From positions 1-35,718 of the IMG/VR virus record IMGVR_UViG_3300037041_001150: 35,718 nt of DNA; one strand, written 5' to 3'. This stretch comes from a virus. Both the position numbers and the translations under genes were made by a program. Below are positions 4,683-15,332 of this stretch, piece after piece. The notes beneath the pieces were generated by a model that was not told where the DNA came from, searched no databases, and saw nothing but the letters and a program-made list of their open reading frames with translations. How positions within the stretch are numbered: position 1 is the stretch's first letter; each line of letters opens with the position of its first letter.

Positions 4683-4943
4683 ATGAAAACATACAAAACA
4701 ATATTATACACGTTAGCAATCATTTTATTATCAGCTTGTTCCCACACTACGCACATGTCCCCTTCTGAGGATGGTAAAACGGCTTGGATCGCACAAGATT
4801 CAATCATGCTGATATTCACTACAAGCAAAAAATACTATTGCATTGCAGACCCAGTTAGGCCCAAATGCATTGAAACAATCGATATAGAGCCTACACCAGA
4901 ACCCAAGGTTGACGATGGGAAGCTTAGAAACATATTTTTTTAA
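4683..4943 (+). CDS. Small lipoprotein, 86 aa
   Basis: The N-terminus is a lipoprotein signal peptide: MKTYK basic start, hydrophobic core, and lipobox L-S-A-C with the lipidated cysteine at residue 19. Signal peptidase II would leave a 68-residue mature protein. Serine at +2 would favour the outer membrane in a Gram-negative host. The mature part has two further cysteines near residues 53 and 62 (YYCIADP, PKCIET), able to form a disulfide, and a short proline-containing segment (EPTPEPK). AAGGAAGG precedes the start. It is the first gene after a strong promoter with a palindrome. Phage lipoproteins in regulated, promoter-proximal positions often act in superinfection exclusion; Rz1-type spanins are the alternative, but the protein is not very proline-rich. 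Confidence 0.75.
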   Translation: MKTYKTILYTLAIILLSACSHTTHMSPSEDGKTAWIAQDSIMLIFTTSKKYYCIADPVRPKCIETIDIEPTPEPKVDDGKLRNIFF

Positions 4944-4957
4944 AACGGAGTAAAAAC

Positions 4958-5203
4958 ATGCTTTTAAAAGGCAGAGACCCAAACGATAAGATTGTACTTA
5001 AAAATGACTTCCACGGTACAAAGTGCATTATCTATCCCTATCCTGGCCAAATCATCACAAAAAGGCAAGTAGGTCATGCTTGGTCAAAGCTCTGTGGCCA
5101 TTATGATTGCGATTGCGTTAAGCCTTTGGGGATAAGAGGCATTCAAAATCAAGAGATTAAAGTCTGTGAGGATGGATCAGCAAAAATCCTAATAAGGAAA
5201 TGA
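4958..5203 (+). CDS. Hypothetical protein, 81 aa
   Basis: I do not recognise this protein. It is a small, mixed alpha/beta-looking protein with four cysteines. Three of them are close together (KLCGHYDCDCVK, about residues 45-53), and a histidine lies inside that cluster, which suggests a metal site or redox-active centre. GGAG is well placed before the ATG. It lies in the operon starting at the lipoprotein gene, with gaps of a few bases on both sides. There is no signal peptide, so it should be cytoplasmic and its cysteines reduced, which favours metal binding over disulfides. Confidence 0.65.
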   Translation: MLLKGRDPNDKIVLKNDFHGTKCIIYPYPGQIITKRQVGHAWSKLCGHYDCDCVKPLGIRGIQNQEIKVCEDGSAKILIRK

Positions 5204-6898: not shown

Positions 6899-7227
6899 CT
6901 GCACACCTTCCTAAAACTGCATTCAAGTGCCATGGCTTCGATTCTTTTCATCATGAAAGAATCGACGTCAAGGCGAACATTTCGGTTGTAAATATCAAAG
7001 TCTCTCAAATGGCCTAACACAAGATGACAGCTTCTGCATAGTGTCATTAGATTTTTAGGCTCTAGCTCTAACTCAGGGAAACGGTGAAAAGGCTTGATGT
7101 GATGCACTTCCAAATGATTATGGCTTGAACAAGCTTCACACCGTGGCTTTGTCTTTAAAAATTCTTTCCTGACTTTTTCCCACTTCGGACTTCTTCCCTC
7201 AAGTGCAAATTTGATTTTATTAAGCAT
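6895..7227 (-). CDS. HNH endonuclease, 110 aa
   Basis: The protein shows a canonical HNH nuclease with its zinc ribbon: C30-x2-C33, then the catalytic VHHIKP (H42/H43), N59, and C64-x2-C67-H68 followed by H73. I prefer ATG 7227 (SD GGAAAAG just upstream) over a GTG seven codons earlier. The size and domain match free-standing phage HNH proteins of the packaging type, which often sit next to terminase genes. Here the terminase lies about 6.5 kb away on the other strand, so a role as a homing-type or general nuclease is equally possible. It overlaps both neighbours. Confidence 0.9.
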   Translation of the reverse strand: MLNKIKFALEGRSPKWEKVRKEFLKTKPRCEACSSHNHLEVHHIKPFHRFPELELEPKNLMTLCRSCHLVLGHLRDFDIYNRNVRLDVDSFMMKRIEAMALECSFRKVCR

Positions 7228-7873
7228 GATCTTTTCCGATAACTGCACAAGTTGAATAAATTGGTAGCCTATCTTTCCATTTTACTTCCAAGTATTCAGC
7301 AGTTTCAAAGAATTCTTTCGGTACTTCATAACTCTGGCTTGAATTGTGGTGACAGAATGAAAGCACTGCAAAATTCTCAAATCCTTTATCCAGAGATTGC
7401 AAACAAAGATCAGTGCCAAAAAGATGCTGATTGGTGATTCTCTCATCAAACATGATATGCTCAAAAGTGCTCTTTTTCACCACCAGACATAGTTCATCAA
7501 GAGTTTGAACAGGAGCATGTAGGTTAAAAGCGTTTCCCCATACATTGCCACGGTCCAGGATGTTTCCTCTCATCATTCCCCGATCATCCCTACCAGCTGG
7601 ACCAATCACTCCCCAGTTAACCGATTCAAGCCTTGCAATGGCAATATCTAGGGATTCAAAAAAATAGCTTGGTAAAAAGACATCTTGATGAACAAATATT
7701 AGTATTTCATTTAATGATTTATCTATAGATTCATTATAAGCTTTACAAATATTTGTTATGTCATATGTAAATAATAAATCATGTTTTAAAATATCAGGTG
7801 ATGAACATAGATTGCTTTTAAAGACTTCTGTTTTATTAACAGCGCATATTATAGAGTATTTGTTTTTAATCAT
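7220..7873 (-). CDS. Probable glycosyltransferase (GT2/GT-A-like), 217 aa
   Basis: The start at ATG 7873 overlaps the methyltransferase stop as ATGA. The sequence has a Rossmann-like N-terminus (KYSIICAVNKTEVF) and a long helical stretch. A hydrophobic strand ending in FVHQDVFLP (about residues 60-68) follows, which occupies the place of the metal-binding DxD strand end of GT-A enzymes. WGVIGPAG and the C-terminal aromatic/His-rich region (FCHHNSS) resemble a family of bacterial glycosyltransferases that carry an HQD motif. Donor and acceptor cannot be told from sequence. It lies in an operon with two other glycosyltransferases. Confidence 0.65.
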   Translation of the reverse strand: MIKNKYSIICAVNKTEVFKSNLCSSPDILKHDLLFTYDITNICKAYNESIDKSLNEILIFVHQDVFLPSYFFESLDIAIARLESVNWGVIGPAGRDDRGMMRGNILDRGNVWGNAFNLHAPVQTLDELCLVVKKSTFEHIMFDERITNQHLFGTDLCLQSLDKGFENFAVLSFCHHNSSQSYEVPKEFFETAEYLEVKWKDRLPIYSTCAVIGKDHA

Positions 7874-8316
7874 TTTATAGCTCTCAACACAGCTTTCACC
7901 CAACAAATTTCATCTTCAGTCTTTTCTGTGGTGAAAAGCTGAATCACTTCGAATTTTGGCTTGATGCTGTAAAGTGCTCGGTAACGATCATCAGTGTAGT
8001 ACAGGAAAGAATTTTGATTCCAGAATGCATAATGGGTTGGATCTTGAAAGGCTCCCCTTCCATCGGTTGAAGGCGTAGTCGAGTAGAAAAACCCGTCAGG
8101 CTTTAGAAGCCGCCAAATCTCTGTCATGATATGAATTCGCTTATCATTTTGAACATGCTCTAGAAAGTCCGTAGCATTCACAGAATCGGCAATATTATCC
8201 TCAAGCGGAATCCTCAGATTGCAATCACACACAAGGTCAACACCATCTAAGGGCTGGCAATCGATCCCGAAAGATCCATGCAGTTTTCGCCTACCACAAC
8301 CTAAGTCAATTATCAT
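7870..8316 (-). CDS. Class I SAM-dependent methyltransferase, 148 aa
   Basis: The true start is probably ATG 8316 (GGAG 7 nt upstream, overlapping the preceding gene). From there the protein opens directly with motif I, MIIDLGCGRRK. A D-containing strand end (FGIDCQP, about residue 19), an ATDFLEHV block and a LLKPDGFFYSTTPS segment follow, all typical of class I methyltransferases of the Methyltransf_11 type. An in-frame start 34 codons upstream lacks support. The protein is short for the family, which suggests a minimal catalytic domain acting on a small molecule, a sugar or a glycan. In this operon, sugar O-methylation is the simplest guess. Confidence 0.8.
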   Translation of the reverse strand: MIIDLGCGRRKLHGSFGIDCQPLDGVDLVCDCNLRIPLEDNIADSVNATDFLEHVQNDKRIHIMTEIWRLLKPDGFFYSTTPSTDGRGAFQDPTHYAFWNQNSFLYYTDDRYRALYSIKPKFEVIQLFTTEKTEDEICWVKAVLRAIK

Positions 8317-8881
8317 TTTCAACTCCCATGCGAGTAAACTTAACAAGTCCAATTTTATCATCGCTCTTTTGACGGTAGTGACCTTTTGGTCCCTCAACCT
8401 GATAGCTTTTACTAACAAACGCCCATACTGTTTTTCCCGTCTTGTTCGCTATCGTTTGAGCTATGCAAACGGGAAATTTCTTGCCTTCCCTGCCACCGGC
8501 TTGGCAGCCATAGAGAATAATCTCAGCGTTATCTGCATAAGGCGCTTTGTAGTGGAAAGATGACCTAAAGTACCTTTGATTAATATCAAGTCCTGTTTTT
8601 GTGTGACTGAATAAAATCAGGCTCTCATCGCTTGAATGGCCGGAATAGATAATCTTGTCGATCTTATCGAATTTTGAGCAAGCGTCTTCCCACAAGTCCG
8701 AAACGGGTGTTGCCGATTCTATCTTTAGATAGTCCCTTGCGTCTATAATCACCACGGTTTCATAGGGATGTTCATGCTTATAGGTAAGCATGTTATCCAA
8801 AAAAGCGTCAGAATACTTAATGACGTTTCCTGCAGCGTCCCTAATTGTCTCTATACCGCAGATAGCTACCACGTTTGTCAT
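8306..8881 (-). CDS. Caspase-clan-like (His/Cys dyad) protein, 191 aa
   Basis: The fold pattern is alpha/beta with two diagnostic strand ends. KIIYSGHSSDESL puts a histidine at residue 82, and AEIILYGCQAGG puts a cysteine at residue 126. This His-Gly-type loop followed by a strand ending in (L/Y)GC is the catalytic arrangement of the caspase/gingipain/C80/DUF4347-type clan, where a His-Cys dyad forms the active site. The following helix (VCIAQTIANKTGKTVWAF) also matches that clan. I infer a cysteine-protease-like or self-processing domain; activity and target are unknown. It lies between two glycosyltransferase genes, overlapping both neighbours. Similar domains occur in bacterial surface proteins and effector systems. 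There is no signal peptide. Confidence 0.6.
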   Translation of the reverse strand: MTNVVAICGIETIRDAAGNVIKYSDAFLDNMLTYKHEHPYETVVIIDARDYLKIESATPVSDLWEDACSKFDKIDKIIYSGHSSDESLILFSHTKTGLDINQRYFRSSFHYKAPYADNAEIILYGCQAGGREGKKFPVCIAQTIANKTGKTVWAFVSKSYQVEGPKGHYRQKSDDKIGLVKFTRMGVENDN

Positions 8882-9543
8882 TTTATTTTACCTTTCAAAT
8901 ATTCAATTTGATCACTGTGCGTAATGTATTCATTATAGTCAATGGTCTGGCTTGTCAGATGATCCACCCTACTGTTAGCACAAAGGGCATGTTTTATCTC
9001 ATGTTCTTGCAGTGCGTCGGCATAGATGTTGTCCGAATACCAGAGGGAGCATCTTTCGCTGAGCGGCATGATCTTCTCAAGTGCTGATCTTTTAGCAACA
9101 AGGCACCATCCACCAATCTCATAGCAAATTCGATATCCTGGCAGAAGTCCTACCCAATTATTCGGGAAAGCCTTCTCATGCCAATGGTTGTGGCTATTCC
9201 AAGGCGTGAAAGATTCAAACTGAGGAAAGCATTTAGCCGAAGCCATTAACGCAGTAAACCAGTACCGAATATAATTCAAATCATTATTTGCAAAAACTAC
9301 CCAATCACTCGAAGATGCTGCATAACCAAGGTTAAGTGCTCGGTTGTAACTAAACTTTTCCTGGTCGAACATGATAGTCATGTCCTGGCCGATGTTAGTG
9401 ATAAATGGCATTGATTCAACAAGTATGACATTAAAGCTATATTCGCTCTCAGATTCTTTCAAGCTTCCAATCGATTTTTTAATCATCGAAGCCAAATTAT
9501 AAGTCGTTTTGCTCGGAATGATAACGTCAACTAATACTGTCAT
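8878..9543 (-). CDS. Family 2-type glycosyltransferase, 221 aa
   Basis: This GT-A fold enzyme would transfer a sugar from a nucleotide-sugar donor. The N-terminal DVIIPSK strand, the YNRALNLGYAAS helix and the strand WVVFANNDL (N86-N87-D88) are the hallmarks of GT2: donor-binding start, A-x-N-x-G helix and the metal-binding NND/DxD site. A C-terminal block (GGWCLVAKRSALEKI, then W-Y-SDN) fits the acceptor loop. AAGGCGAG precedes the ATG at 9543. It overlaps the TPR-glycosyltransferase gene by 17 bases. The acceptor is unknown; candidates are virion proteins, host surface glycans or modified DNA. Confidence 0.8.
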   Translation of the reverse strand: MTVLVDVIIPSKTTYNLASMIKKSIGSLKESESEYSFNVILVESMPFITNIGQDMTIMFDQEKFSYNRALNLGYAASSSDWVVFANNDLNYIRYWFTALMASAKCFPQFESFTPWNSHNHWHEKAFPNNWVGLLPGYRICYEIGGWCLVAKRSALEKIMPLSERCSLWYSDNIYADALQEHEIKHALCANSRVDHLTSQTIDYNEYITHSDQIEYLKGKIK

Positions 9544-10567
9544 ATTCGCTCGCCTTAAAATGTTTATCTACTGCCTGTTTGATTTGCCTAATGTGCAGAA
9601 GCATATTGCATGGAGTTACCGAGTATTTATCTTGCTCACTAAAAAGGCGCTGAACATATTTGTTCTTCATAGCCTCTAGGCAGCATCTTTCAGCCTCATC
9701 GTATCTCTTTTGTGTCGTATAGATATAGGCTAGCTCGCACCATGATTCGGACCATGTGGGGTCTTTCGAGAGTAACTCTTTGGATAACCTGATAGCCTCA
9801 TCGGTTTTACCTAATGCCTGTAACCATCTTGCCGCTCTAAAATAGCAGTGAGCTAGTTCAGCAAACCAACATGTTTCCCCTGCATTAACCCTTCTGATAT
9901 ACTCACAGTACCATTTGATAGCCTCATCATAATTCTTGATATCAACATTTTCATTTGCATAGTAAAACAGAGACCGAAGTGGTGGATAGATTTCTTCCTT
10001 CAAAATCCTTAGATTTCGCTGTGTCCCGTTTTCCTGATTGGCATGGCTCACATAATGGTGCTGAACGGTGATAGGGATATGATGAACACGTTTCTCCCAA
10101 TTGACAGCCAAGCATTCGTGGACCCTTCCAACATACCTAGCTCTCATGCTCTTTCGCCAAATCTTATAGCTATTAAACGTGAGACCACTATCCATCCGGT
10201 AGTTGATAGAAAAGAAATCACCTTCGTTTTCTTCAATCACCTTTTTGATATCGGTGGTGATCAGGATATCATCAGCGTCAGCCGACATGATAAAATCAAC
10301 ATCCATTTCTTCTAACAGTTTGATGTACTGATTGCGAGCGAGTGAGAAGTCCCTCATTCTTCCCTCATCGTCATTACATTCAAGAAACGTGACAACCTGA
10401 TAATCAATGCCAGTATGACGCAAAGCTTTCATTGCTGCATTGATTGTTCCATCGCTTGAACCTGTGTCTACAATCACAATTGCATCCACTGCAGGGATAA
10501 AGCTTTCCAGACAAGCTGGTAAATCCTTTTCCTCATTTTTAACGATTAATCCAAGTCCTATTTTCAT
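9527..10567 (-). CDS. GT2 glycosyltransferase fused to TPR-like repeats, 346 aa
   Basis: The N-terminal half is a classic GT2 domain. LIVKNEEKDLP starts it, VDTGSSDGT (residues 33-41) contacts the donor, and MSADADD (97-100) supplies the DxD metal ligands. The C-terminal half (about residues 205-315) consists of helical repeats resembling TPRs, such as YDEAIKWYCEYIRRV, KTDEAIRLSKELLSKDP and RYDEAERCCLEA. This GT2-TPR arrangement occurs in peptide S- and O-glycosyltransferases of the SunS type and in other bacterial protein glycosyltransferases, where TPRs bind the polypeptide acceptor. A protein acceptor is therefore likely, though this is inference. It overlaps the Fis-like gene by 4 bases. 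Confidence 0.85.
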   Translation of the reverse strand: MKIGLGLIVKNEEKDLPACLESFIPAVDAIVIVDTGSSDGTINAAMKALRHTGIDYQVVTFLECNDDEGRMRDFSLARNQYIKLLEEMDVDFIMSADADDILITTDIKKVIEENEGDFFSINYRMDSGLTFNSYKIWRKSMRARYVGRVHECLAVNWEKRVHHIPITVQHHYVSHANQENGTQRNLRILKEEIYPPLRSLFYYANENVDIKNYDEAIKWYCEYIRRVNAGETCWFAELAHCYFRAARWLQALGKTDEAIRLSKELLSKDPTWSESWCELAYIYTTQKRYDEAERCCLEAMKNKYVQRLFSEQDKYSVTPCNMLLHIRQIKQAVDKHFKASEYDSIS

Positions 10568-10914: not shown

Positions 10915-11318
10915 AAGAGGTGAACACATATGTTTGAAGATTTAAAAATGACGCTGGAATACTGGCCGATAGAAAAACTAATACCATATGCCAGAAACCC
11001 AAGGAAGAATGATCATGCTGTGGAAAAAGCAGCATCTTGGATCAGGGAATTTGGCTTTAGAGTGCCTATCCTTGCAAAGAGCGATGGAACTATTGTCGAT
11101 GGGCACTTGCGTTTAAAGGCAGCAAAGAAGCTTGGCATAACCCAAATACCTGTTAGCCTTGCCGATGATATGACCGAAGTCCAAATCAAAGCTTTTAGGC
11201 TATCAGTCAACAAGATGAGCGAGCTAGCAGATTGGGACGATGATTTATTAAAGCTTGAATTAGAGGAACTGGACAATCTGCAGTACGATATCGATAGCCT
11301 TGGTTTTGATGATATTAA
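10915..11318 (+). repeat. 404-bp direct repeat, copy 1 (ParB domain and RBS)
   Basis: This covers the ribosome binding site and first ~130 codons of the ParB-domain gene. It matches 12543-12946 at an offset of exactly 1628 bases. I count about 26 mismatches, roughly 94% identity, and the first 84 coding bases plus the RBS are identical. Homology ends abruptly at both ends. Confidence 0.95.
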
Positions 11319-11697
11319 ATTCGACAAAGATATTGAAGATGAATTAGAAAACAATAATTACACCAAGAAAATAAAATCACCTATTTATGAACCAAAAGGC
11401 GATAAACCTGAAGTAAAAGAGCTATTTGACAATCAAAAAACAAATGAATTGATAGAAGAAATAGACAAACAAGATTTACCCGAAGAAATAAAAATATTTC
11501 TTAAGAAAGCAGCCGAAAGGCATACGGTATTTTCATATGAAAAAATAGCGGAATATTATTGTCATGCTAATAAAAACATTCAAGATTTGATGGAGAAGTC
11601 TGCGCTCATAATAATTGACTTTAATAAAGCAATTGAAAATGGCTTTGTAAAACTTGCTGATGAACTAGCGGAGGCTTATTCGAATGATAAGCAATGA
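10930..11697 (+). CDS. ParB-domain protein with conserved phage C-terminal domain, 255 aa
   Basis: Residues 1-125 form a ParB/sulfiredoxin-like domain: IEKLIPYARNPRKND, then GTIVDGHLRLKAAKKLG with the GHxR box, as found at the front of phage DNA methyltransferases. In place of a methylase, residues about 145-250 carry a different, helical domain. It begins KKIKSPIYEPKGDKPEV and contains ERHTVFSYEKIAEYYCHAN and LMEKSALIIIDFNKAIENGFVKL. I recall this domain from phage proteins beside TET-associated glycosyltransferase genes, with no known activity. The gene ends by overlapping the glycosyltransferase start by 14 bases. The N-terminal part is an almost exact copy of the ParB domain of the gene at 12558. 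A role in choosing DNA sites for modification is inference. Confidence 0.8.
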   Translation: MFEDLKMTLEYWPIEKLIPYARNPRKNDHAVEKAASWIREFGFRVPILAKSDGTIVDGHLRLKAAKKLGITQIPVSLADDMTEVQIKAFRLSVNKMSELADWDDDLLKLELEELDNLQYDIDSLGFDDIKFDKDIEDELENNNYTKKIKSPIYEPKGDKPEVKELFDNQKTNELIEEIDKQDLPEEIKIFLKKAAERHTVFSYEKIAEYYCHANKNIQDLMEKSALIIIDFNKAIENGFVKLADELAEAYSNDKQ

Positions 11698-12565
11698 TTT
11701 CATCGCATTCATCTTGACAAACGGACGGCCTAACAATGTTGTGACATATGACACATTAAGAAAATGTGGCTATACAGGTCCCATCAGATTGATTGTTGAT
11801 GATCTAGACAAAACAAAAGAAAAATATATCGAAAAATATGGTGAAGATGTCATCATTTTTGATAAGAATGCAATAGCAAAAACATTCGACCAAGCTGATA
11901 ATTTTAACGATATGCGAGCAATAATCTATGCAAGAAATGCATGTTTTGAGATAGCTAAAAATATTGGATATGAATATTTTATAGAACTCGACGACGATTA
12001 TACAAGCTTTGATTGGCGTTTTGATAACGAATTTAATTATATTCACACAACTATAAAATCAAATCTTGATGCTGTTTTTCGAAGCATTTTGAATTTTTAT
12101 AAGTCAACAAATATTCACTCTATAGCCATAGCTCAAGGTGGCGACTATATCGGCGGTCCAGGATCTGGCATATGCTTTGGTAAAGGTCTAGTAGGTCTTA
12201 AAAGGAAATGCATGAATTCTTTTCTCTGCAGTACCAAGAGACCTTTTCAATTTTTAGGAAGAATAAATGAGGATGTAAACACATACACAAAACAAGCTTC
12301 AATAGGTCTATTGATGTTTACAACAAATCAAGCATGTTTAAATCAAAAAATAACGCAAACAAACTCAGGTGGCATGACTGAACTATATCTTGATTCAGGA
12401 ACATATGTGAAAAGTTTTTATTCGGTAATGTTTCAACCATCTTCTGTAAAGATAAAATTGATGGGATTTACAAGTAAAAGATTGCACCACAATGTTGATT
12501 GGCCAAATACAATACCTGTTATTTTAAATCAAAAATATAAAAAAGAGGTGAACACATATGTTTGA
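11684..12565 (+). CDS. TET-associated glycosyltransferase (TAGT)-like protein, 293 aa
   Basis: This appears to be a GT-A-type glycosyltransferase of the TAGT group, known from phages that hyper-modify DNA bases. Visible features are FILTNGRPNNVVTYDTLRK and GYTGPIRLIVDD at the N-terminus (the donor-binding start), a FNDMRAIIYARNACFEIAK helix, and the metal-binding ELDDDY (D103-D105). A GRINEDVN segment near 192-199 follows, in the position of the catalytic base loop. In known neighbourhoods these enzymes sit with TET/JBP oxygenases and glycosylate oxidised methyl groups. No such oxygenase is seen in this window. GGAGG precedes the ATG. Its last codons read into the second repeat copy, so the C-terminal tail (KKEVNTYV) is created by the duplication junction. 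Confidence 0.75.
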   Translation: MISNDFIAFILTNGRPNNVVTYDTLRKCGYTGPIRLIVDDLDKTKEKYIEKYGEDVIIFDKNAIAKTFDQADNFNDMRAIIYARNACFEIAKNIGYEYFIELDDDYTSFDWRFDNEFNYIHTTIKSNLDAVFRSILNFYKSTNIHSIAIAQGGDYIGGPGSGICFGKGLVGLKRKCMNSFLCSTKRPFQFLGRINEDVNTYTKQASIGLLMFTTNQACLNQKITQTNSGGMTELYLDSGTYVKSFYSVMFQPSSVKIKLMGFTSKRLHHNVDWPNTIPVILNQKYKKEVNTYV

Positions 12566-12946
12566 AGATTTAAAAATGACGCTGGAATACTGGCCGATAG
12601 AAAAACTAATACCATATGCCAGAAACCCAAGGAAGAATGATCAGGGTGTAGACAAAGCCGCATCTTGGATCAAAGAATTTGGCTTCCGTGTGCCTATTCT
12701 TGCAAAGAGCGATGGAACTATTGTCGATGGACATTTGCGTTTAAAAGCAGCAAAGAAGCTTGGCATAACCCAAATCCCGGTTAGCCTTGCCGATGATATG
12801 ACCGAAGTGCAAATCAAAGCCTTTAGGCTATCAGTCAACAAGATGAGCGAGCTAGCAGATTGGGACGATGACCTATTGAAGCTTGAATTAGAGGAACTGG
12901 ACAATCTGCAGTATGACATTGATAGCCTTGGATTTGATGATATCAA
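12543..12946 (+). repeat. 404-bp direct repeat, copy 2 (ParB domain and RBS)
   Basis: This is the second copy of the 10915-11318 repeat. It includes the same AAGAGGTGAACACAT leader and ATG, and continues through the ParB domain of the methyltransferase gene. The repeats face the same way and flank the glycosyltransferase gene plus the variant C-terminal domain of the first ParB protein. Confidence 0.95.
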
Positions 12947-13736
12947 GATAGATAAACATGATTCAAATGGTGGTCTGACCGATCCCGATGAAGTGCCGGA
13001 AGTCCCTCAGAACGTCTTTGGTGTGAAACGTGGGGATATCTGGTTACTTGGTAATCATAGGCTTATGTGTGGTGATAGCACAGATGAAAATGATGTTAAG
13101 AAACTGATGAATGGTCAGAAGGCGGATATGGTCTTTACCGATCCGCCATACGGAATAAATTTTAGTAATGATTCACTTCCAAAAAAAGATTTTAAAGGCG
13201 TTAGGGAAGGACTAAAGCATAATAAATATAAACCTATTATCGGTGATTATTCAGATTTTGATCCAAGTTTTATTTTAGATTTTTTTGATTGTGATGATAT
13301 TTTTGTTTGGGGAATAAATCACTATGCCGATAAATTGCCAAGAAGCACTTGGATAGTATGGGATAGAAAACTAAATGATTCAGCCGATAAAAATTTGGTA
13401 GGGGACTTTGATTTATGTTGGTCAAAAAACACACATAAAATGACAATGATTAGAATACCATGGTTTGGTGTTTTTGGTCACTCAAAGGTTGATGATGGTA
13501 AAAATAAGGTTCATCCTACGCAAAAACCCGTAAAGTTGGCTGAAAAGTTTTTTGAAAAATGGGGAAATAATAAACAAAATATTGTCGATTTATTTCTCGG
13601 ATCGGGATCAACTTTAATAGCTTGCGAAAAGACAGGCCGGACATGCTACGGGTTAGAACTAGATGAGCACTATTGCAGCGTTATAATTAAAAGGTTTCAA
13701 GATTTTAGCGGTAAACAAGCAGTAAGAGAGGGTTAA
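12558..13736 (+). CDS. ParB-domain DNA methyltransferase (N6-adenine/N4-cytosine type), 392 aa
   Basis: Residues 1-125 form the ParB-like domain with GTIVDGHLRL. The methylase follows: a VKRGDIWLLGNHRLMCGDST lead-in, catalytic motif IV TDPPYG (DPPY at 195-198), VHPTQKP (318-324), and the AdoMet-binding motif DLFLGSGST (344-352) followed by GLELDE. Motif IV before motif I marks the beta class, which methylates the amino group of A or C. The architecture is common in phages just upstream of the terminase. It starts within the last codons of the glycosyltransferase and ends one base before the small-terminase ATG. It may protect phage DNA from restriction. Whether its product is further glycosylated is unknown. 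Confidence 0.92.
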   Translation: MFEDLKMTLEYWPIEKLIPYARNPRKNDQGVDKAASWIKEFGFRVPILAKSDGTIVDGHLRLKAAKKLGITQIPVSLADDMTEVQIKAFRLSVNKMSELADWDDDLLKLELEELDNLQYDIDSLGFDDIKIDKHDSNGGLTDPDEVPEVPQNVFGVKRGDIWLLGNHRLMCGDSTDENDVKKLMNGQKADMVFTDPPYGINFSNDSLPKKDFKGVREGLKHNKYKPIIGDYSDFDPSFILDFFDCDDIFVWGINHYADKLPRSTWIVWDRKLNDSADKNLVGDFDLCWSKNTHKMTMIRIPWFGVFGHSKVDDGKNKVHPTQKPVKLAEKFFEKWGNNKQNIVDLFLGSGSTLIACEKTGRTCYGLELDEHYCSVIIKRFQDFSGKQAVREG

Positions 13737-13737
13737 A

Positions 13738-14142
13738 ATGGAAGATAAACCCAAACGCAAGACAGGACCAAAGAAAGGCGAAGGTGGTAGGCCTCTTATC
13801 GAGATAGATTGGAAGCTTGCCGAAAAGTTGGCATATATCCAATGCACCGCAAGGGAGATAGCATCCACATTAGGTATTGACGATGAGACCTTGGCTAACG
13901 CATGTAAGCGAGTGAATAAATTAACATTTTCGCAATGGTATAAAAAGCATTCCGAAGCTGGATGTTGCTCTTTACGCAGGTCAATGTGGAAATCTGCAAC
14001 ATCAGATAGGCCAAATGTTGCTATGCAAATATGGCTGTCTAAGAACTACTTAGGCATGAAAGATTTCGTCGAACAGAATGTTGATGTGAAGAAAACGCCT
14101 ACCTTAAATCTTATTATTGGTCAGAAAAAAGACGATGAATAA
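13738..14142 (+). CDS. terS: Small terminase-like DNA-binding protein, 134 aa
   Basis: Terminase small subunits recognise phage DNA and deliver it to the packaging motor. The basic, glycine-rich N-terminus (KRKTGPKKGEGGRP) leads into a helix-turn-helix: LAEKLAYIQCTAREIASTLGIDDETLANACKR. The block SLRRSMWKSA...NVAMQIWLSKNYLGMKD, typical of one TerS group, follows. The gene lies directly between the methyltransferase and the large terminase, with a one-base overlap to the latter. The length (134 aa) is normal. The assignment relies on these motifs and position. Confidence 0.85.
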   Translation: MEDKPKRKTGPKKGEGGRPLIEIDWKLAEKLAYIQCTAREIASTLGIDDETLANACKRVNKLTFSQWYKKHSEAGCCSLRRSMWKSATSDRPNVAMQIWLSKNYLGMKDFVEQNVDVKKTPTLNLIIGQKKDDE

Positions 14143-15332
14143 TGGATATAATCATACCAGAGAAGTTTACCGGACTTGCTGAAGATAAGCGTTATTATGT
14201 TTACTATGGTGGTCGAGGCAGCGGCAAGAGCCATAGCATTGCAAGATATCTAATATGTGTTGCTCTGAATGCGCCTACAAAAATACTCTGCACAAGAGAA
14301 TTTCAAAACTCAATCACTGAATCCGTTTATGTACTCCTGAAAGACATTATTAGTCAGTATGAGCTAGCAGACTATTTTCATATCAAGAATTCATCTATCG
14401 ATTGTGTGAATGGATCAACACTTATTTTCAAGGGACTTGCCCACAACATTGAATCGGTAAAATCAACTGAGGGTGTTGATATTTGTTGGATTGAGGAAGC
14501 CGACAAGGTTAGTCAGAATTCATGGGATATTCTAATACCCACAATCAGAAAACCGAACAGCAAAATCATTGTCACGTTTAACCCTACTCACGATGACGAT
14601 CCAGCCTATACAATGTTTATCGTCAATCCTCAGCCTAACTCGATTATCGAGAAGGTAAATTACTCTGATAATCCATGGTTCCCCGAAGTGCTTAAGCAAG
14701 AACTAGAGCACATGAAAGCAACGGACTATGACCGTTATTTGCATGTTTGGGAAGGCGAGTTAAGGACAATATCCGATGCTCAAGTATTTAAAGGAAAATT
14801 TGTTGTAGAACCATTTGAAACAGGTAATGAAGTATTTTATCACGGTATGGATTTTGGTTTTGCGAAAGATCCAACAACGATTGTCAGATGCTTCATCAGG
14901 GGAAAGTCTCTTTACATTGACCGTGAACAGTATGGACACCATATAGAAATCGACAAAATCCCTATCATGATCAAAAAAATCATGGAAGGCGCTGAATCAT
15001 GGCGCTGGAAAATTAGGGGAGATGCTGCTAGGCCAGAGACCATTTCATATCTCAAGAATCTGCACTTCAATGTTGAAGCTGCGCCAAAATGGCAAGGCAG
15101 CGTAGAGGATGGAATTGAATACATTAAAAGCTTTCAAAAAGTTGTGATCCATCCTTCTTGCATTCACTCGATTGAAGAATTCAAACGCTATAGCTACAAA
15201 ATAGATAAACGCACAAATGACATTCTTCCTATCGTGCTTGACGATTACAATCACATAATCGATAGCGTTAGATATGCGCTGGCCGATCTTATTAAACGCA
15301 AGACAACGATATACGATGCGGGAGTGCTATAG
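14142..15332 (+). CDS. terL: Terminase large subunit (packaging ATPase/nuclease), 396 aa
   Basis: The N-terminal ATPase has Walker A GGRGSGKS (residues 23-30), Walker B ICWIEEAD (114-121) and the coupling segment VTFNPT (about 144-149). The C-terminal RNase H-like nuclease starts at GMDFGFAKDPT (first catalytic Asp at 237) and includes IRGDAARPE and the final DDYNHIIDSVRYAL. This is the Terminase_3/XtmB group. The length is near the lower end for the family but both domains look complete. It cuts concatemeric DNA and powers packaging into the procapsid at the portal vertex. A promoter-like gap of about 70 bases separates it from the portal gene. Confidence 0.96.
   Translation: MDIIIPEKFTGLAEDKRYYVYYGGRGSGKSHSIARYLICVALNAPTKILCTREFQNSITESVYVLLKDIISQYELADYFHIKNSSIDCVNGSTLIFKGLAHNIESVKSTEGVDICWIEEADKVSQNSWDILIPTIRKPNSKIIVTFNPTHDDDPAYTMFIVNPQPNSIIEKVNYSDNPWFPEVLKQELEHMKATDYDRYLHVWEGELRTISDAQVFKGKFVVEPFETGNEVFYHGMDFGFAKDPTTIVRCFIRGKSLYIDREQYGHHIEIDKIPIMIKKIMEGAESWRWKIRGDAARPETISYLKNLHFNVEAAPKWQGSVEDGIEYIKSFQKVVIHPSCIHSIEEFKRYSYKIDKRTNDILPIVLDDYNHIIDSVRYALADLIKRKTTIYDAGVL

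What the first reader, a model, noticed from the sequence alone, without database searches (positions are those of the whole stretch)
10915..13736. ParB-domain protein + TAGT-like glycosyltransferase + ParB-methyltransferase: candidate DNA-modification module
The sequence shows two ParB-domain proteins flanking a glycosyltransferase with TAGT-like motifs, followed by a DPPY methylase, all in one operon upstream of the terminase. TAGT enzymes are known in phages next to TET/JBP oxygenases, where they are thought to glycosylate oxidised bases. No oxygenase is visible in this window. Either the oxygenase lies elsewhere in the genome, or the glycosyltransferase acts on a base made another way, which would be an unreported combination. 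The ParB domains could provide site selection.
Basis: partly seen in the sequence, partly recalled or inferred. Interest (0 to 1): 0.82.

Follow-up and report, generated by a model that had tools for sequence, protein, structure and literature searches.

The report
TET-free phage glycosyltransferase with obligate partner
Next to its DNA-packaging genes this phage carries a sugar-transferring enzyme of the family that usually decorates TET-oxidised DNA, but it and its relatives lack TET and instead always pair the enzyme with a small uncharacterised protein domain, a pairing that also sits in about one in six complete E. coli genomes and so can be tested in the laboratory.

Summary
In detail: ORF 11684-12565 is a TAGT glycosyltransferase (PF20691, E 5.6e-30) between a ParB-domain protein and a ParB-fused DNA methylase, directly upstream of terminase. 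The interpretation changes in three ways. (1) ParB and the methylase are not the core. The constant partner is the C-terminal ~110 residues of the first ParB protein ("CTD", 11344-11694; no Pfam family, no PDB fold match). It accompanies 177 of 180 TAGT loci; the three exceptions begin at contig ends. A search with CTD alone found TAGT beside it in 80 of 80. In dozens of loci CTD stands alone without ParB. CTD co-evolves with TAGT (r 0.65); the ParB domain fused to it does not (r 0.02). (2) No TET was found in 46 CTD-TAGT records, including complete small phage genomes. In Acadian-type phages TET sits where CTD sits here (ParB-TET-TAGT-terminase). (3) TAGT without TET is not itself unreported (T6; 'solitary' TAGTs). 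Best reading: CTD-TAGT is a two-protein glycosylation unit, probably modifying phage DNA before packaging, on an acceptor not made by TET. The chemistry is undemonstrated. At least 80% of the pair lies in 885 of 5426 complete E. coli genomes (Rac prophage).

The parts
10930..11697 (+). ParB_A: exchangeable ParB N-terminal domain followed by the CTD
   Evidence: phrog_620 E 1.9e-56; PF02195 19.8 bits, below cut-off
10930..11332 (+). ParB N-terminal domain of ParB_A (motif IVDGHLRLKAA), recently homogenised with the domain of the methylase
   Evidence: 93% identity over 390 nt to 12558-12947; only 33% identical to the ParB domain of L002, whose TAGT is 73% and CTD 65% identical
11344..11694 (+). 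CTD: conserved ~110-residue partner domain of TAGT; an extended conserved N-terminal segment followed by five helices
   Evidence: present in 177 of 180 TAGT loci; TAGT beside it in 80 of 80 loci found with CTD alone; model pLDDT 83; no PDB fold match
11684..12565 (+). TAGT glycosyltransferase, GT-A fold
   Evidence: PF20691 E 5.6e-30; model pLDDT 91, best match GnT-I Z 14.6
11990..11998 (+). DDD motif of TAGT (residues 103-105), expected metal/nucleotide-sugar site
   Evidence: D104 and D105 invariant, D103 at least 90% in 72 homologues
12266..12274 (+). NED motif of TAGT (residues 195-197), GT-A xED position
   Evidence: D197 invariant, N195 and E196 at least 90%
12485..12490 (+). HH of TAGT (residues 268-269), C-terminal His position of GT-A enzymes
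   Evidence: both invariant in 72 homologues
12558..13736 (+). ParB domain fused to a beta-class N6/N4 DNA methylase (DPPY); an accessory, not conserved with the pair
   Evidence: PF01555 E 3.4e-19; relatives in 1101 phage records; any relative in only 9 of 180 TAGT loci
13738..14142 (+). terminase small subunit (conserved downstream context)
   Evidence: phrog_309 E 7.6e-7
14142..15332 (+). terminase large subunit (conserved downstream context)
   Evidence: phrog_3717 E 1.9e-69

Best explanation
The unit is CTD plus TAGT, two proteins that work as one glycosylation enzyme. SHOWN by sequence: the two are inseparable across phages of very different hosts, including a haloarchaeon; CTD-linked TAGTs form a subfamily apart from TET- and hydroxymethylase-linked TAGTs; the enzyme keeps its GT-A catalytic residues; TET and hydroxymethylase are missing. 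INFERRED: CTD (acidic) binds TAGT (basic), partly through its conserved extended N-terminal segment; the optional ParB domain delivers the complex to DNA; TAGT moves a sugar from a nucleotide sugar to bases of the replicated phage genome just before packaging, shielding it from host nucleases. Since neither TET nor a hydroxymethylase is there, the acceptor is a base made another way: an ordinary or methylated base that TAGT can use only with CTD, or one prepared by CTD itself. In this window a ParB-fused adenine/cytosine methylase was added to the operon and shares its ParB domain with the pair.
For: Pairing: 177/180 TAGT loci and 60/60 clusters at 60% identity have CTD; 80/80 in the reverse direction; in the phage collection the CTD search returns only TAGT-bearing records. 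Co-evolution: CTD-TAGT r 0.65, Mantel 0/500; ParB-TAGT r 0.016, 203/500; 95% range of the difference 0.43-0.76; mean net charge CTD -7.4, TAGT +6.0. Distinct subfamily: fork 99/98. No TET: 0/93 genomes or records by PF12851 and 0/46 by a phage TET profile with its control ringing; Nigel and Zemanar ring with PF12851. No hydroxymethylase: PF00303 in 2 of 54 CTD-TAGT records, one an annotated thymidylate synthase beside dihydrofolate reductase. DNA as target: same slot upstream of terminase as ParB-TET(-TAGT) hypermodification islands; T6 TAGT acts on phage DNA (PMC13216743).
Against: No modified base has been seen; nothing here proves that DNA is the substrate. CTD lies between ParB and TAGT, so linkage explains part of the co-evolution contrast. 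ParB domains are poorly conserved (31%), although they do track TAGT above 70% TAGT identity. Most viral records are fragments. The profiles could miss a very divergent oxygenase. L. delbrueckii phages Ld25A and Ld17 carry deletions through the pair, so it is dispensable there.
Confidence: 0.55

Rival explanations
1. CTD is itself the enzyme that makes the acceptor: a new base-modifying enzyme that replaces TET or dCMP hydroxymethylase, after which TAGT adds the sugar.
For: In Acadian TET is the gene directly before TAGT and in T6 dCMP hydroxymethylase is; here CTD is. R59, H60, Y72, E84, D92, Y15 are near-invariant.
Against: About 110 mostly helical residues, no recognisable cofactor motif or fold match; the conserved part includes an extended N-terminal segment that looks like a docking peptide.
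Confidence: 0.25
2. TAGT glycosylates a protein (CTD itself in a glycogenin-like way, terminase, or a capsid protein) rather than DNA.
For: Fold neighbours include protein glycosyltransferases: collagen galactosyltransferase, polypeptide GalNAc-T, glycogenin; CTD has invariant tyrosines; the pair sits beside packaging genes.
Against: GT-A fold neighbours say nothing about the acceptor; the characterised relative (T6) acts on DNA and the TET-linked relatives are expected to; the pair also occurs away from terminase in Vibrio phage pv27.
Confidence: 0.17
3. An ordinary TET/JBP pathway, with a divergent oxygenase elsewhere in the genome.
For: The window is an incomplete linear record; PF12851 scores phage TETs only weakly (28 bits).
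Against: No hit with a phage-derived TET profile in 46 CTD-TAGT records, including complete genomes of 32-65 kb; no recurrent neighbour enzyme apart from CTD and terminase-region genes.
Confidence: 0.05
4. A ParB-guided DNA-modification module of ParB, TAGT and methylase, as first proposed, with the methylated base as the sugar acceptor.
For: The three genes overlap in one operon and the two ParB domains are nearly identical.
Against: The methylase is absent from nearly all relatives and ParB from dozens, so neither can be required; the ParB identity is a recent local event.
Confidence: 0.05

Closest known systems
TET-TAGT hypermodification islands of actinobacteriophages (Mycobacterium phage Acadian; Arthrobacter phages Altadena, Klevey)
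   Same: ParB-domain gene first, then TAGT; in Acadian just before the terminase genes
   Different: TET is present and CTD absent; their TAGTs fall outside the CTD-linked clade
T6 beta-glucosyl-HMC-alpha-glucosyltransferase (ggt)
   Same: PF20691 member, E 4.8e-11 in the T6 genome
   Different: next to dCMP hydroxymethylase, adds a second glucose to glucosyl-hmC; no CTD; very divergent
'Solitary' phage TAGTs noted in PMC13216743
   Same: TAGT without alpha-GT or beta-GT; our family is probably part of this group
   Different: the passages of that paper read here describe no partner domain
ParB-fused phage DNA methylases (phrog_498)
   Same: the third gene of the window is one (E 1e-104)
   Different: an independent, very common phage gene (1101 records)

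Membership tests
TAGT (PF20691) | profile score above the curated cut-off | tested here: met
   105.2 bits against 27.5
TAGT (PF20691) | GT-A fold with DxD and xED motifs | tested here: met
   model pLDDT 91, GnT-I Z 14.6 rmsd 3.6 over 198 residues; DDD and NED conserved
TAGT (PF20691) | linked to a TET/JBP oxygenase (source of the name) | tested here: not met
   0/46 records with the phage TET profile, control positive; 0/93 with PF12851. T6 shows that this link is not needed for membership
TAGT (PF20691) | transfers sugar to a hydroxymethylated or glycosylated DNA base | not testable with these tools
   needs mass spectrometry or enzyme assay
TET/JBP hypermodification operon | TET/JBP dioxygenase gene | tested here: not met
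TET/JBP hypermodification operon | ParB-domain gene at the head of a cluster just upstream of terminase | tested here: met
   compare
ParB partition protein (ParABS) | ParB N-terminal domain | tested here: met
   phrog_620 E 1.9e-56; PF02195 below cut-off
ParB partition protein (ParABS) | ParA partner and parS sites | not tested
   not searched for
N6/N4 DNA methylase | PF01555 score above cut-off and catalytic DPPY | tested here: met
   70.1 bits against 26.7; DPPY read in the translation

The most novel reading that the evidence does not exclude
CTD is an unknown kind of base-modifying enzyme, or an activator that lets a glycosyltransferase act on DNA bases that were never hydroxymethylated or TET-oxidised: a third, TET-independent route to sugar-bearing DNA, spread over phages of bacteria and archaea and carried by many E. 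coli Rac prophages.
Probability: 0.35. Interest if true: 0.88.

Novelty: new variant of a known kind. Interest (0 to 1): 0.7.

Why it matters
What phage TAGTs do when no other DNA glucosyltransferase is present has been stated as open (PMC13216743). An obligate partner domain gives that question a handle: the right protein pair to express, residues to mutate, and natural nulls. Because at least 80% of the pair is in 885 of 5426 complete E. coli genomes (16%), annotated only as ynaK and 'hypothetical' or 'GREB1-related protein', while K-12 has lost all but a ynaK fragment, a clean test can be made in standard laboratory strains. If DNA is modified, it would be a widespread anti-restriction modification in prophages of the best-studied bacterium that has gone unnoticed.

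Tried and rejected
Profile search of CTD against PDB sequences: best E 0.0055 to adhesin A and similar coiled or repeat proteins, judged chance. Fold search of CTD in PDB: no E below 1, VIA Z at most 2.5; absence of a match does not prove a new fold. Viral fold library: only its own family. TAGT sequence profile against PDB: no hit. NCBIfam and PADLOC gave nothing for CTD or TAGT; a weak SerK hit (E 0.011) for the ParB domain was not pursued. CTD in ParB proteins of TET phages: not found. Recurrent unknown oxygenase near TAGT: neighbour clustering shows only terminase, small HTH-like proteins, replication and recombination genes. Literature: by DOI, three papers on TET/JBP and viral DNA glycosylation that I recalled (Iyer 2013, Burke 2021, Pyle 2024) are not in the library, so a prior mention of this domain there cannot be excluded.

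Full report
CHECK. The middle one is a TAGT: PF20691 105.2 bits (cut-off 27.5), phrog_842 E 2e-68. The third is a ParB domain fused to a DPPY methylase (PF01555 E 3.4e-19). Terminase genes follow at once. The two ParB domains are 93% identical over 390 nt with the same ribosome-binding site; 23 of the 31 nucleotide differences over 134 codons are synonymous, so they were duplicated or converted recently and kept under purifying selection. The window is an incomplete linear record of a phage with RecT, portal, major head protein and a contractile tail.

THE REAL PARTNER. The first ParB protein has a second domain, residues about 139-255, here called CTD (11344-11694), covered by phrog_620 but by no Pfam model. 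Among 180 non-duplicate TAGT loci from IMG/VR, GTDB genomes and named phages, 177 have CTD on the same strand, 171 of them directly before TAGT; the three without it start 50-114 bases from a contig end. At 60% TAGT identity, 60 of 60 clusters have it. A scan with CTD alone returned 80 loci, all with TAGT close downstream. In the phage collection CTD occurs only in TAGT-bearing records. Dozens of loci have CTD as a free ~132-aa protein without ParB, including a 191-kb Vibrio phage. The counts come from the best-scoring hits of capped scans, not from a census.

CO-EVOLUTION. In 71 dereplicated loci that have all three domains, CTD and TAGT distances correlate (r 0.65, Mantel 0/500), while ParB and TAGT do not (r 0.016, 203/500) although ParB is fused to CTD. 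At 60-70% TAGT identity half of the pairs already have unrelated-looking ParB domains. The window shows it: against L002 its TAGT is 73%, CTD 65% and ParB only 33% identical, while its ParB domain is 61-62% identical to those of L113, L126 and L182. Physical linkage contributes, since CTD lies between ParB and TAGT. CTD is acidic (mean -7.4) and TAGT basic (+6.0).

NO OXYGENASE. PF12851 found nothing in 93 genomes or records, but it is a weak detector: it scores the TETs of phages Nigel and Zemanar at only 28 bits. A profile of eight phage TETs found none in 46 CTD-TAGT records while its control rang (the control, MED4-184, was also a row of the profile); these include complete c5, phi jlb1, JNU_P11, HHTV-2 and NTR1. 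PF00303, which detects T6 dCMP hydroxymethylase, was in 2 of 54 CTD-TAGT records; in pv27 it is annotated thymidylate synthase beside dihydrofolate reductase, and in the contig of L070 it is unresolved. Neighbour clustering showed no other recurrent enzyme.

CONTEXT. In TET phages the same slot holds ParB-TET-(modifying enzymes)-terminase: Wooper has TET, aGPT-Pplase2 and 5-hmU DNA kinase; Acadian has ParB-TET-TAGT-gp4-TerS-TerL. Their ParB proteins lack CTD. In T6 the TAGT gene lies beside dCMP hydroxymethylase. So where other TAGTs have an acceptor-making enzyme as neighbour, this subfamily has CTD. CTD-linked TAGTs are separated from the TET- and hydroxymethylase-linked ones by a 99/98 fork, with long-branch caveats for T6, L087 and L106. 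Occasional extra genes between CTD and TAGT are a SAM methyltransferase (L066, L101, L137), a phosphatase-cytidylyltransferase (L155) or a second TAGT (L102, L159), which fits nucleotide-sugar chemistry.

STRUCTURE. The TAGT model (pLDDT 91) is GT-A, nearest GnT-I (Z 14.6, rmsd 3.6, 198 residues), with D104/D105, D197 and H268/H269 invariant. The CTD model (pLDDT 83) has five helices after a low-confidence but conserved N-terminal stretch, which I read as a docking segment. No fold match in PDB.

HOW IT PROBABLY WORKS. CTD-TAGT is one enzyme; ParB, when present, is an exchangeable DNA-loading domain; the sugar goes to phage DNA before packaging. Only the genetics and the fold are shown; DNA as substrate, the base and the sugar are inferred.

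E. COLI. At least 80% of the pair's DNA is in 885 of 5426 complete E. coli genomes; 1572 have at least a part. Intact reading frames were not checked in each. K-12 MG1655 keeps only a truncated ynaK, followed by ydaY. The pair is dispensable in L. delbrueckii phages: Ld25A joins the ParB N-terminus to the last TAGT residues, and Ld17 has lost ParB-CTD and part of TAGT.

VERDICT. A real, widespread and overlooked two-protein unit built on a known enzyme family: a new variant of a known kind.

Noticed in passing
window 7220-10567, minus strand: A divergent cluster next to the module: three GT2-like glycosyltransferases (one with TPR repeats), a class I methyltransferase and a weakly DUF4347-like protein. 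It may alter host surface sugars or extend a sugar put on DNA.
   Followed up: partly
L066:5117-6001, L101:5162-5998, L137:1509-2342 (also L158:4207-4944): A ~280-aa SAM methyltransferase family (about 35% identity between unrelated loci) inserted between CTD and TAGT, or just before CTD in L158: a possible third component.
   Followed up: partly
L155:5323-6318: A histidine-phosphatase/cytidylyltransferase fusion between ParB-CTD and TAGT, suggesting a dedicated nucleotide-activated donor.
   Followed up: partly
L102:5160-6858 and L159:5339-6996: Two TAGT genes in tandem after CTD, as if two sugars were added.
   Followed up: no
L226 (Ld25A) 90-515 and L225 (Ld17) 75-833: Natural deletions that remove CTD and most of TAGT, or ParB-CTD and part of TAGT, in Lactobacillus delbrueckii phages closely related to c5.
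   Followed up: yes
L234 (E. coli K-12 MG1655) 4878-5141: ynaK in K-12 is an 87-aa remnant of the ParB-CTD gene of the Rac prophage; no CTD, TAGT or terminase gene lies between it and ydaY/ynaA.
   Followed up: yes
L222 (Gordonia phage Wooper) 1-4649: ParB, TET, aGPT-Pplase2 and 5-hmU DNA kinase in a row before terminase: a complete-looking thymine hypermodification island.
   Followed up: no
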